A stretch of 64,000 nt of DNA, from contig NZ_LS422986.1 in assembly GCF_900411375.1 (NCBI RefSeq), positions 186,001 through 250,000 of the forward strand. Direction: 5' to 3'. The position numbers were made by a program, and so were the translations under genes. Positions 13,432 to 26,858 of this stretch are shown in pieces (position 1 is the first letter of the stretch; every line of letters begins with the position of its first letter). This DNA comes from Lentilactobacillus raoultii. GTDB taxonomy: Bacteria > Bacillota > Bacilli > Lactobacillales > Lactobacillaceae. The notes below the pieces were generated by a model. That model searched no databases and was not told the DNA's origin. It saw only the letters and a list, made by a program, of their open reading frames with translations.

Positions 13432-13736
13432 CAATGACAACAAGATATTCGAAAAAAACGATGCGTAGAAGAGTAGTTTTTATGACGATTTGAAGAGAAT
13501 CCCAATTTGGTGCGATGGGGTAATCGAATTAAAAATGAAAGTAGTCTACAAGTTGTAACTATGATTTCAATGGTAGTAGTTACTGGGAATGCGCCCATTA
13601 CCGCAATGGAGTATCGCTTAAGTTTATGAGCCTAAGCCGTACTTTTTGAGCTAATTATTGTGAGATAATTAGGAACAAAGGTGGTAACACGTTGAAAACG
13701 TCCTTGACTGTTAAAAAACAGTCAAGGGCGTTTTTT
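13432..13736 (+). promoter_or_regulatory. T-box leader (probably tRNA-Val) before brnQ
   Basis: The leader has the Stem I apical features AAGAGAAT and GGTGCGATGG, and the T-box core AACAAAGGTGGTAACACG (13673-13690). It ends in a terminator (CGTCCTTGACTG with CAGTCAAGGGCG, then T6, 13699-13736). The Stem I basal strands GTAGA and TCTAC enclose the loop sequence GAAA-GTA-G, with GTA at 13541-13543. By alignment with the methionine T-box in this same window (GAAA-ATG-G), GTA would be the specifier, meaning valine. Uncharged tRNA would stabilise the antiterminator and raise expression of the transporter. The T-box class is clear; the valine call is inference. Confidence 0.85.
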
Positions 13737-24133: not shown

Positions 24134-24904
24134 TTATTGATAACGCATGCCGCCATCGACTTGGACGGATTGACCAGTAATGTACTTTGCATCTGGTGAC
24201 ACAAACCAAGCCACAGCGTCCGCAACATCTTCAGGGGTGGCTTCTCTTCCCAAAGAAATTTCGGTTAGGCAGTTTGCCTGCTGTTCCTTAACAGAAATAT
24301 TTTTAATTTCGGCAGTTCGTTTATCAATACCATCGCGCAATGGTGTTCGGACGATGCCTGGATTATAGGCATTTACGGTAATTTGATATTTGGCCAGTTC
24401 TTTTGAAGCTGCCTGAGTTAACCCACGAATGCCAAATTTTGAAGCAGAATAGGCACTTTGAAGTGCTGACGCTTCAACGCCGGCAAGCGAAGCAGCGTTC
24501 ACAATTCGGCCACCTTTGCCCTGTTTGATAAATTGTTTGGCAGCTGCCTGAATGCCCCAATAAGTTCCCTTCAAATTAACATCGAAAAGTCGCTCCACAT
24601 CGGCAGGCTTTGAATCGACAAAGGAATCAATAAAGGCCACACCCGCATTGTTCACAAAGACGGCTAGCTCACCCAAATCATTAACCGCTGTCTTAACCAG
24701 ATCAAAAACCTCTTCGCGATGGGCAACGTCGACGTAGTAGGCCTTAGCTTTGTATCCCGAATCTTTAAGTTGTTTAGCGACTTTTTTAGCAGTTCGTTGA
24801 TTGATATCAGCGACCGCAATGGCGTAACCTTCTTTGGCTAAACGCTTGGCAATCCCTTCACCGATTCCCTGACCTGCACCTGTTACAATTGCTAACTTTG
24901 ACAA
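24134..24904 (-). CDS. Diacetyl reductase / acetoin (butanediol) dehydrogenase, SDR family
   Basis: 256 residues of a classical short-chain dehydrogenase. NAD-binding TGAGQGIGEGIAKRL at residue 8, NNAG near 88, catalytic Ser in NAASLAGVEA near 140, and YSASK near 155 are all present. The sequence resembles (S)-acetoin-forming diacetyl reductases (BudC type). These reduce diacetyl to acetoin and acetoin to butanediol, reoxidising NADH. TTG 24904 is chosen because GGAG lies 8 bases before it. It sits directly behind a methionine T-box leader and before metN, an unusual place for a fermentation enzyme. Confidence 0.8.
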   Translation of the reverse strand: MSKLAIVTGAGQGIGEGIAKRLAKEGYAIAVADINQRTAKKVAKQLKDSGYKAKAYYVDVAHREEVFDLVKTAVNDLGELAVFVNNAGVAFIDSFVDSKPADVERLFDVNLKGTYWGIQAAAKQFIKQGKGGRIVNAASLAGVEASALQSAYSASKFGIRGLTQAASKELAKYQITVNAYNPGIVRTPLRDGIDKRTAEIKNISVKEQQANCLTEISLGREATPEDVADAVAWFVSPDAKYITGQSVQVDGGMRYQ

Positions 24905-24932
24905 TTTAATCACTCCTTTAAATTTTGGTACT

Positions 24933-25200
24933 AAAAAACGCTCCTGTAATTAACTTACAGAAGCGTTCATTCGCTGTACCATTCTGAGTTCACTTAATCA
25001 GTTACCTAAAAAAGTCTCGCCAACCATCGTAAGAAATGGTGTGTCTAGTAACGAAGACCAGCCCGTTTAGTGCTTTTGCCTAAGCGATCACACTAACCAA
25101 TCATCGGCCATTTTCATTTCCGCACAAGGATCGGCTCTCATCAACCGCCGACTCTCTGAACAATGTTTGAAAACTACTTTCCGAATCAACTTGTTTAGAT
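24933..25200 (-). promoter_or_regulatory. T-box leader (tRNA-Met) of the reductase-metNIQ operon
   Basis: Read on the minus strand. Stem I apical elements are CAGAGAGTCGGCGGTTGATG. The specifier loop is GAAA-ATG-G with ATG at 25109-25111. The T-box core is CAGAATGGTACAGCG (24972-24986). The terminator is AACGCTTCTGTAA with TTACAGGAGCGTT and T6 (24933-24968). An ATG specifier means methionine, which fits metNIQ downstream. Met T-boxes are known in Lactobacillales in place of SAM riboswitches. Confidence 0.88.
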
Positions 25201-25266
25201 AACAATATTAAAATCAAATGAAATTAACACCATTAAAAATAGCAGGCAATGAAGAATTTGTCAAAT

Positions 25267-25523
25267 AAAGTGAGCGAAAGCCAGCGATTAAACTCCGGAG
25301 TGTAAGGCGTCGATTGGAGGAATCCTGTTTTTGGATTTATCCAATCGATCCCTTACATGCAGGAGTTTGCTGGGTGTAACTGTCCTAAAAAGTGAGCGGA
25401 TTCAAGCGGTTAATTCACGGAGACTAAGGCGTCACTTGGAGAAATCCTGCCTTTGGATTTTTTCAAGTGATCCCTTAGACGCAGTGAATTGCTTGAAGCA
25501 GCTGTCCTAAGAAAGTGAGCGGA
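25267..25523. repeat. Tandem structured element: two 122-nt copies and a third header
   Basis: Copy 1 is 25267-25388, copy 2 is 25389-25511, and the header AAAGTGAGCG recurs at 25512. Each copy starts AAAGTGAGCG and ends CTGTCCTAA. Each folds into a long hairpin with the same nested stems, but the stem sequences differ between copies while staying paired. For example AAACTCC/GGAGTTT in copy 1 is AATTCAC/GTGAATT in copy 2, and CGATTGGA/TCCAATCG is TCACTTGGA/TTCAAGTGA. An inner AATCC/GGATT and the outer TAAGG/CCTTA are constant. It lies between the pheB stop and the methionine T-box, on the strand of both operons. No open frame of note is inside. Confidence 0.75.
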
Positions 25524-25540
25524 ACCAGTAACTTACGTCA

Positions 25541-25975
25541 TCACTCAATCGAAACCAGCTGGACGTTACTTGCACCACTGATTTGTTTGAGATTATTTAA
25601 GAGGTCATCAACTGTCCCGGTTAGGTGACTTAAGTCTAGGGAAATGACAATACTGGCGATATTGTGAATGGGAATGTTTTGGTTGATCGTCAAAACGCTG
25701 GCACTTGATTCAGAAACGGTTTGCAGAATTTTTGAAAGCATGCCACGGCGATTTTCCAACATCAGTGAGATGACGGCCTTTCGATCAATCATATTTTCTT
25801 CCGGCAAAAAAACTAAATCTTTATATTTATAATACGTTCCACGACTAATCCCGACAATCTTCACGGCTTCGCTGACTTGCCTGACTTTGCCACTTTCTAA
25901 CAATTGTCTCGCCTGAATGACCTTATCAAATGATTCAGGGAGAATCGAGCTATCAACGATGTAGTACTTTTCCAC
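25541..25975 (-). CDS. pheB: ACT domain-containing protein, PheB family
   Basis: 144 residues. The N-terminal half has a helix-turn-helix-like stretch (SEAVKIVGISRGTYYKYKD). The C-terminal half is an ACT domain (RKAVISLMLENRRGMLSKIL onward) that usually binds an amino acid. It matches the UPF0735/PheB family. GTG 25975 is preferred: GAGG lies 9 bases before it and the product then starts MEKYYIVDSS like homologues. It overlaps thrB, so it is the third gene of thrC-thrB-pheB and may sense an amino acid of that pathway; this is inference. Confidence 0.78.
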   Translation of the reverse strand: MEKYYIVDSSILPESFDKVIQARQLLESGKVRQVSEAVKIVGISRGTYYKYKDLVFLPEENMIDRKAVISLMLENRRGMLSKILQTVSESSASVLTINQNIPIHNIASIVISLDLSHLTGTVDDLLNNLKQISGASNVQLVSIE

Positions 25976-26858
25976 GTTCAATTACCTCACTCTGAACACC
26001 AGTCAGATCGACAGCCAATTTTCTGATTTTCCAATCCGGAAAGGCGGTTTTGGCATTTTGCAAAATGGCATCTGCTGATTTTTCATTGGGCGTGATTGCC
26101 ATCATTGTCGAACCACTGCCACTAATATACATAGTACCATTTGATTGCTCGGAAATGGCTTTTGCCTGAGCATAATCCGGAATTAATTTTGCTCGATAGG
26201 GTTCATGCATTCGATCATCGCATGCTTTATGAATTAAGTGCATGTCACCCAACTCTAAAGCTTTTGTCATCACCGCGCATCGGCTGACCTGATGAATGGT
26301 ATCCGCGTAACTCATTGATTTTGGCAGTACTTTTCGGGCAGCTCGCGTGCTAACTTCGTAATTCGGGATTAGTGCGACAAGGTTCAGTTGGTCATTGACA
26401 TCATACTTAACGACGGTCGGGCGATTTTGCTCGTCCAAGAAAGAGACACAGAGACCGCCAAGAATGGCTGGCGTTACATTATCCGGATGGCCTTCCATTT
26501 CAGTAGCAAGCACCAGCAACTGGTCGGAAGAGATAGCATTGTCAAACCAGGTGCTGGCAGCTTTTAAACCGGCAACGATGCAGACGGATGAACTACCAAG
26601 CCCGCGAGCCACTGGAACGTCGGTATCGATTGAAATTTTAATGTTTGGTACCGGCTTATCCAGGTAATCACACCCTTTCACAAAGGCTTGGTAGACTAAA
26701 TTGTCTTCGGTTTGAAATTCAATTGGACACCCAGTGATCTCAAGCTTTTCGGCACTCTCTTCAAAACTGATTGTTGAGTAAAATGAAACCGCCAGACCCA
26801 TACAGTCAAATCCGACGCCGACATTGGCACTAGTTGCTGGAACTTTGATCTTTATCAT
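25953..26858 (-). CDS. thrB: Homoserine kinase
   Basis: 301 residues of the GHMP kinase family. The N-terminus KVPATSANVGVGFDCMGLA binds substrate, and PVARGLGSSSVCIVAGL (about residue 85) is the ATP-binding GHMP loop. ISGSGSTMMAI near 250 is the third motif. It phosphorylates homoserine before threonine synthase. Its ATG overlaps the end of thrC by 29 bases with GGAGG inside thrC. Confidence 0.92.
   Translation of the reverse strand: MIKIKVPATSANVGVGFDCMGLAVSFYSTISFEESAEKLEITGCPIEFQTEDNLVYQAFVKGCDYLDKPVPNIKISIDTDVPVARGLGSSSVCIVAGLKAASTWFDNAISSDQLLVLATEMEGHPDNVTPAILGGLCVSFLDEQNRPTVVKYDVNDQLNLVALIPNYEVSTRAARKVLPKSMSYADTIHQVSRCAVMTKALELGDMHLIHKACDDRMHEPYRAKLIPDYAQAKAISEQSNGTMYISGSGSTMMAITPNEKSADAILQNAKTAFPDWKIRKLAVDLTGVQSEVIERGKVLHR

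What the first reader, a model, noticed from the sequence alone, without database searches (positions are those of the whole stretch)
25267..25523. Two tandem 122-nt hairpin elements with covarying stems, between the thr operon and the methionine T-box leader
Two copies share start (AAAGTGAGCG), end (CTGTCCTAA) and inner AATCC/GGATT, but several stem arms differ in both strands so pairing is kept (AAACTCC/GGAGTTT vs AATTCAC/GTGAATT; CGATTGGA vs CACTTGGA with matching partners). A third header follows. Paired changes point to selection on RNA or cruciform structure, not on sequence. It does not match a riboswitch or T-box that I know. It may be a small RNA pair, an mRNA 3'-end element of thrC-thrB-pheB, or a small non-autonomous repeat.
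Basis: partly seen in the sequence, partly recalled or inferred. Interest (0 to 1): 0.72.

Follow-up and report, generated by a model that had tools for sequence, protein, structure and literature searches.

The report
Mobile hairpin cassettes abutting gene ends
The two hairpins are one array of an apparently undescribed family of small mobile DNA hairpins, present in about a hundred copies in this bacterium and in related lactobacilli, whose units are strung together in mixed combinations, often flush against the ends of genes, and whose two arms mutate in step so that one strand keeps its fold.

Summary
In detail: two 120-nt hairpin units (25269-25388, 25391-25510) plus a third, truncated header (25514-25527). 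It is not local. The host genome holds about 111 units in 64 arrays; 19 of 24 genus genomes, own included, carry the family, and so does a second genus, with the same ends but different stems. No Rfam family, phage or plasmid record matches. Relatives lack arrays at orthologous sites. Covariation is strong: 32 of 40 pairs show changes on both sides. G-U far exceeds A-C on the + strand, so the selected fold belongs to that single strand, not to a cruciform. Array neighbours are no more alike than random units (72.5% vs 72.5%), so arrays are mostly assemblies of independent units. Of 29 arrays whose left neighbour gene reads towards them, 25 start at or within 7 nt of its stop codon, 1.8 expected. 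Pairing does not depend on transcription sense. Best reading: a non-autonomous mobile hairpin family moving as a folded single strand. The enzyme is unknown; RVT_1 and Y1 transposases do not track copy number. New variant of a known kind.

The parts
25269..25388 (+). unit 1 (120 nt hairpin, AGTGAGCG...CTGTCCTAA)
   Evidence: covariance model 122.9 bits; fold z -6.9
25389..25390 (+). joint 1 (AA)
   Evidence: sequence; joints compared
25391..25510 (+). unit 2 (120 nt hairpin)
   Evidence: covariance model 135.1 bits; fold z -6.8
25511..25513 (+). joint 2 (GAA)
   Evidence: sequence
25514..25527 (+). terminal partial unit: 14 nt of a third header (AGTGAGCGGAACCA), then unrelated sequence
   Evidence: anchored alignment to 39 units ends at unit position 14
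   Evidence: ORF list; Pfam ACT_4, 27.1 bits against a cut-off of 27
24956..25198 (-). neighbour: T-box leader on the other side of the array (not part of the element)
   Evidence: Rfam RF00230, 92.3 bits, E 4.4e-21, just under the gathering score of 93

Best explanation
It is one array of a family of non-autonomous mobile elements whose unit is a hairpin of about 111-124 nt with fixed ends (5' AGTG, 3' GTCCTAA) and a stem of nearly free sequence. Shown: high and variable copy number, presence/absence at orthologous sites, conservation of the fold of one strand only, head-to-tail arrays of units no more related than random ones, a sharp 5' edge, 3' ends that may be incomplete, and frequent placement flush with the 3' ends of genes. 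Inferred: each unit is a separately mobile cassette recognised as a folded single + strand (ssDNA, or less likely RNA). Its 5' end is joined precisely to the target, several different units can be joined head to tail, and the last may be incomplete. Pairing is kept because only foldable copies are propagated, not because the host uses the element. The enzyme is not identified.
For: Fold. One strand: in pair columns chosen on Watson-Crick variation alone, G-U 43 vs A-C 6 cells (39 units), 79 vs 14 (98 units), 29 vs 3 (second genus), where independent sides would give ratios of only 1.2-1.4. A C-C mismatch inside the covarying stem is nearly fixed (C in 96 and 97 of 98), so arms are not simply copied from one another. 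Independent units: adjacent 72.5% vs non-adjacent 72.5% identity, 38 adjacent pairs; only 7 of 38 adjacent pairs recur at 90% although 29 and 30 of the 38 first and second members have a relative; near-identical units stand in swapped order at one site in two related genomes. Sharp 5' edge: 82 of 84 tail matches end a model match, whereas of the 100 listed headers (of 142) 72 start one, 21 follow a last one and 7 are solitary. Gene ends: 25 of 29, 1.8 expected. Not tied to transcription. Slight excess of the + strand on the G-rich strand, 43 of 64 (p 0.008), as a lagging-strand-template preference would give.
Against: No enzyme was found. Terminal partial units are common here (45 of 64 arrays at alignment score 6 or more, no null run for that score) but by eye in only about 6 of 18 arrays of other genomes of the genus and 1 of 8 loci of the second genus, so they may be a lineage feature. 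Joints resemble the left flank (p 0.0002 to 0.002), which could mean a target duplication and repeated single insertions rather than joint assembly. Some arrays are block copies (C3:37504 and C3:42223 share units and joints), so joints are not fully independent. No pair of near-identical strains was available, so target duplications were not measured. G-U against A-C cannot tell ssDNA from RNA. Local GC skew is confounded by gene direction.
Confidence: 0.6

Rival explanations
1. SINE-like retroposition: an RNA is reverse transcribed at a nicked target and the polymerase jumps from one RNA to the next, giving mixed arrays with a truncated last copy.
For: Sharp edge on one side, truncation on the other, mostly within the first arm (44 of 45 partials at 49 nt or less; further, longer truncated last copies are printed); neighbours independent; no age gradient along arrays (last below first in 10 of 30 with degenerate units left out, 16 of 36 with all).
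Against: Truncation at the 3' side needs an antisense RNA template, but the selected fold is that of the + strand. Of three RTs read (G000, G003, G017), that of G003 carries a group II intron maturase domain and the other two only RVT_1; by recalled looks they are a defence-type and a diversity-generating RT.
Confidence: 0.13
2. Host-used RNA element: mRNA 3'-end stabiliser, attenuator or small RNA.
For: Strong RNA-like covariation with a conserved internal mismatch; frequent placement right after stop codons.
Against: No orientation preference: upstream gene sense in 29, antisense in 34 of 63 arrays. Pairing equal in sense and antisense settings (p 0.15; units with only antisense neighbours p 0.51; 97 of 98 units placed). 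Absent at orthologous sites; 5 of 24 genus genomes have none (two of these five are under 90% complete).
Confidence: 0.12
3. Site-specific cassette system (integron- or CRISPR-like): units are captured at a terminal half-unit by a recombinase that reads the hairpin.
For: Same-strand head-to-tail units in free combination, near-identical units in swapped order at one site, n+1 headers in many arrays, short similarity between joints and left flank.
Against: 28 of 64 arrays hold one unit, and no shared target letters are seen by eye at the left edges; terminal half-units are often absent in relatives; no recombinase was identified, and none was searched for.
Confidence: 0.12
4. Passive satellite: tandem duplication by slippage, with arm-to-arm correction making the arms match.
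For: One four-unit array (C9) is a duplicated dimer.
Against: Neighbours are not more alike than random; the C-C mismatch is nearly fixed; wobble is strand-specific; dispersal over 15 contigs.
Confidence: 0.03

Closest known systems
YPAL / RU-2 of Yersinia (as described in PMC2229807, passages read)
   Same: Dispersed non-coding palindromic element of 100-200 bp with inverted repeats inside rather than at the ends and no TA ends; empty and filled sites; proposed effect on upstream transcripts
   Different: Here units form mixed head-to-tail arrays, the stem sequence is nearly free, and ends are AGTG...GTCCTAA; target duplications of 3-26 bp (YPAL) were not measured here; no sequence comparison with YPAL was run
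REP / GTAG repeats and REPINs with RAYT transposases (PMC3733652, passages read; PMC3116915, listing and start of abstract only)
   Same: Hairpin repeats with a fixed short end; the end often supplies the stop codon TAG of the flanking ORF (PMC3733652)
   Different: Units are 111-124 nt, not 20-40; no Y1 transposase in this genome or in G006 and G009; GTAG and CGTC tags were not sought
ERIC, Correia/NEMIS, RUP and other bacterial MITEs (PMC2229807, passages read)
   Same: Small, dispersed, hairpin-forming, not coding for a transposase
   Different: Those have terminal inverted repeats and mostly TA ends with target duplications; here only 3 bp of end pairing and no TA rule seen
Integron attC sites (recalled)
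   Same: Hairpins of free sequence and kept shape read on one strand, in same-strand arrays
   Different: No cassettes with genes; integrases were not searched for; attC box motifs are recalled and were not tested

Membership tests
Bacterial MITE (ERIC/NEMIS/RUP type) | terminal inverted repeats | tested here: not met
   ends AGTG and GTCCTAA do not pair; only 3 bp just inside them do
Bacterial MITE (ERIC/NEMIS/RUP type) | TA target duplication | tested here: not met
   left flanks of 63 of 64 arrays end in varied letters without a TA rule, read by eye
YPAL/RU-2 type palindromic element | dispersed non-coding 100-200 bp hairpin with empty and filled sites | tested here: met
YPAL/RU-2 type palindromic element | target duplications of variable length | tested here: inconclusive
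   joints resemble left flanks more than chance but the right side is unclear and no near-identical empty site was available
REP/RAYT system | Y1 transposase in the genome | tested here: not met
   PF01797 absent at E 1e-5 in G000, G006 and G009, present in 7 of 24 genus genomes
SINE-like retroposon | reverse transcriptase available | tested here: inconclusive
   PF00078 in 8 of 24 genomes, G000 among them; none in G006 and G009, which reach the 150-copy cap; loss of an RT after spread not excluded
SINE-like retroposon | truncation at the 5' end of the templating RNA | tested here: not met
   copies are truncated at the 3' side of the strand whose fold is selected
Integron-like cassette | integrase gene associated | not tested
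   no integrase family was searched
Rfam RNA families | match to a described family | tested here: not met
   over the window one gathering match only, a T-box at 13452; permissive scan of 25200-25600: best E 0.034, a microRNA hairpin at 20.8 bits against a gathering score of 71

The most novel reading that the evidence does not exclude
A class of bacterial mobile element in which each coding-free hairpin is an independent cassette, recognised only by two short ends and a foldable top strand. Cassettes move as folded single strands and are strung together in free combination at insertion, aimed at the 3' ends of genes, by an enzyme not yet known.
Probability: 0.35. Interest if true: 0.8.

Novelty: new variant of a known kind. 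Interest (0 to 1): 0.6.

Why it matters
It gives an apparently undescribed, abundant repeat family in lactobacilli with an unusually clear record of how it spreads. Strand-specific wobble shows which strand is read as a hairpin, and mixed arrays show that neighbours are mostly joined rather than duplicated. Such data bear on how the small palindromic repeats of bacteria move, which the 2007 review read here in passages (PMC2229807) calls a question for future work. The family also supplies stop codons to some host genes, and its copy-number spread across the genus offers a natural comparison for finding the enzyme.

Tried and rejected
A local regulatory element of thrC-thrB-pheB or of the T-box: rejected because of dispersal, empty sites and lack of orientation bias. 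Riboswitch or known RNA: Rfam in both modes. Phage or plasmid origin: no match to the window array in 50,697 phage or 72,556 plasmid records; the one IMG/VR pattern hit has no model match in its locus and looks like chance. Intrinsic terminators as the insertion target: a simple scan of mine found 5 of 29 sense-left arrays (6 of 64 in all forward, 14 of 64 reverse) against 161 of 2000 random windows, and missed long stems visible by eye, so it is inconclusive. CRISPR-like growth with old units at one end: no score gradient (last below first in 10 of 30 arrays with degenerate units left out, 16 of 36 with all), although 9 of the 10 degenerate units are last in their array. Antisense-RNA retroposition was my favoured reading until the G-U test pointed to the + strand. 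Literature searches on lactobacillar or bacterial hairpin repeats showed no description of this family: 12 papers listed; 20 listed; 0; 1; 13; 15 listed of 111; 5; of these I read passages of PMC2267715, PMC2229807 and PMC3733652 and otherwise saw listings; most subscription papers are not in that library.

Full report
Observation. The window holds two 120-nt hairpin units at 25269-25388 and 25391-25510 and a third, 14-nt header at 25514-25527. Each folds far better than shuffles (z -6.9 and -6.8). They lie between the stop codon of an ACT-domain ORF (25541-25981, minus strand) and a T-box leader on the minus strand (24956-25198, 92.3 bits against a gathering score of 93).

It is a dispersed family. 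A blast of the array against its own genome gave 48 matches. A covariance model built from 39 units gave 118 matches at E <= 0.1, with 150 of 1,746 candidates scored; I dropped 7 reverse-strand echoes, leaving 111 (some degenerate) in 64 arrays: 28 single, 28 double, 5 triple, 3 quadruple. The joint pattern CTGTCCTAA-(2 to 5 nt)-AGTGAGCG occurs in 14 of 397 genomes of the family, 10 of the own genus and 4 of one other, with zero control hits. Named records with one version of the joint are Lentilactobacillus fungorum, L. rapi, L. kisonensis and Pediococcus ethanolidurans; genome G212 of the second genus has the same series of joints as the P. ethanolidurans record, so I call that genus Pediococcus by inference. 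That the window's genus is Lentilactobacillus is likewise inferred. The window array matched no phage or plasmid record.

It moves. At the window's site relative G005 has the two flanks joined with 12 nt between them and no array; G007 has an unrelated insert of about 830 nt there. Two arrays on contig C5 are absent in G007, G008 and G013; at one of them the host ORF ends 7 and 8 codons earlier than in G013 and G008 and takes its stop from the element, while at the other the array starts 2 nt after the shared TAA (codons counted by eye). In G017 and G003 (flanking alignments about 93-95% identical) a three-unit array of G017 is absent from G003; the few bases at the junction differ between the two, so no duplication can be read. 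At another site both have arrays with two near-identical units in opposite order.

What is conserved. In 98 units of this genome the 5' AGTG is invariant and GTCCT nearly so. The three bases inside the ends pair and covary (A-U 86, U-A 7, G-C 2; G-C 85, A-U 12; C-G 72, U-A 18). Of 40 pairs, 32 show changes on both sides and 96.7% of cells pair; on the MAFFT alignment of 39 units, not fitted to the structure, the numbers are 24 of 40 and 96.6%, with covariation 0.458 against 0.180 shuffled. In the second genus, 23 of the 26 units listed were aligned (three L278 units left out); 28 of 37 pairs have compensatory changes while the ends stay the same. A C-C mismatch within the stem is nearly fixed.

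Which strand folds. A G-U pair on one strand is an A-C mismatch on the other. In columns chosen only because they show at least two Watson-Crick types, G-U outnumbers A-C by 43 to 6 (39 units), 79 to 14 (98 units) and 29 to 3 (second genus); by pairs 11 to 1, 14 to 2 and 9 to 1; composition alone would give 1.2 to 1.4 to 1 (totals). The cells are not independent events, and the structures came from programs that count G-U as paired. So the + strand, 5'-AGTG...GTCCTAA-3', is most likely the folded one. A cruciform, in which both strands fold, would show no such asymmetry. RNA and ssDNA both fit.

How arrays are built. Adjacent units are 72.5% identical, non-adjacent units 72.5% (38 adjacent pairs among 98 units). 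At 90% identity 29 of 38 first and 30 of 38 second members have a relative elsewhere, yet only 7 of 38 adjacent pairs recur as a pair, two of them a duplicated dimer at one locus; at 85% it is 14 of 38. Tandem duplication is therefore not the rule, though block copies exist. Joints resemble each other within an array (p < 0.0002, 26 arrays) and resemble the left flank (p 0.0002 to 0.002; 84 joints in 53 arrays). There is no gradient of decay along arrays.

Edges. Of 84 tail matches 82 end a model match; of the other two, one looks like an internally deleted unit and one was not examined. Of the first 100 listed headers (142 in all, control 2) 72 start a match, 21 follow a last one and 7 are solitary. 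45 of 64 arrays end in a recognisable partial unit, 44 of these at 49 nt or less. Besides, nine arrays end in a degenerate copy counted as a unit by the model; two of the nine keep their tail and are internal deletions, the others are truncated, and only C23:19897 is also among the 45. In other genomes of the genus about 6 of 18 arrays, and in the second genus 1 of 8 loci, end in such a header by eye, so this mark is not universal.

Where it sits. Of 63 placed arrays the left neighbour gene reads towards the array in 29. In 25 of these 29 the array begins inside the stop codon region or within 7 nt after it: in 8 the stop is T^AG, in 6 it is the TGA of the header, in 2 it lies 14 nt in, in 1 the first A completes it, and in 8 it precedes the array. 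A uniform placement in the same gaps predicts 1.8 (P about 3e-29); gap lengths come from simple ORF calls. On the right, 13 of 30 converging genes end within 14 nt of the partial unit, two of them overlapping it. In the second genus a stop codon likewise stands at the left edge of several arrays by eye. Whether this is targeting or survival at tolerated places is not settled; survival alone does not explain why so few of the 29 lie 10-100 nt downstream.

Function. Orientation to neighbouring genes is balanced. Pairing is equal in units with a sense and an antisense upstream gene (97.3% and 96.3%, p 0.15) and in those with only antisense neighbours (p 0.51). This argues that the fold is kept by propagation, not by use in transcripts.

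Mechanism. I infer a single-strand intermediate: the folded + strand is recognised, its 5' end joined to the target, further units joined behind it, and the 3' end is sometimes incomplete. A slight excess of the + strand on the G-rich strand (43 of 64, p 0.008) fits a lagging-strand template but is confounded. RVT_1 occurs in 8 of 24 genomes (G000 among them) and Y1_Tnp in 7 of 24 (not G000); neither is found in G006 or G009, which reach the copy cap, while G003 and G017, which also reach it, have both. Of three reverse transcriptases read one is a group II intron protein; none is known to be linked to the element. The enzyme remains open.

Known relatives in kind. YPAL/RU-2 (PMC2229807, passages) is the nearest in build, and GTAG REPs (PMC3733652, passages) are the nearest in giving stop codons to ORFs. 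The present family meets the general features of YPAL-like elements but fails the terminal-repeat and TA tests of MITEs and, for this genome, the Y1 test of REP systems. I file it as a new variant of the known kind 'small mobile palindromic repeat'. I found no description of it.

Noticed in passing
window 24956-25198 (-): T-box leader scoring 92.3 bits, just under Rfam's gathering score of 93, so a default scan misses it; downstream of it lie a short-chain dehydrogenase ORF (24134-24913) and an ABC transporter with NIL domain and NlpA lipoprotein.
   Followed up: partly
window 13452-13708 (+): A second T-box leader above the gathering score.
   Followed up: no
L211:18880-19074 (G017 C22), further matches in G003: A second hairpin repeat family of about 195 nt with other ends; in G017 it sits where G003 has a terminator-like hairpin.
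   Followed up: partly
L206 near 2007 (G000 C9:93806, minus): A solitary header fragment followed within about 25 nt by its own reverse complement (AGTGAGCGAA / TTCGCTCACT), as a fold-back copy would leave.
   Followed up: no
L100 (G007 C113), site orthologous to window 25267-25540: About 830 nt of unrelated sequence at the place where the window has its array; it seems to hold a small ORF.
   Followed up: no
L285 (G017 C29): Reverse transcriptase (RVT_1) next to a protein that looks like a diversity-generating-retroelement target (label recalled).
   Followed up: no
L202:6117-6811 (Pediococcus ethanolidurans): Six-unit array of 112-113 nt units just after a stop codon, with two of its stems occurring twice.
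   Followed up: partly
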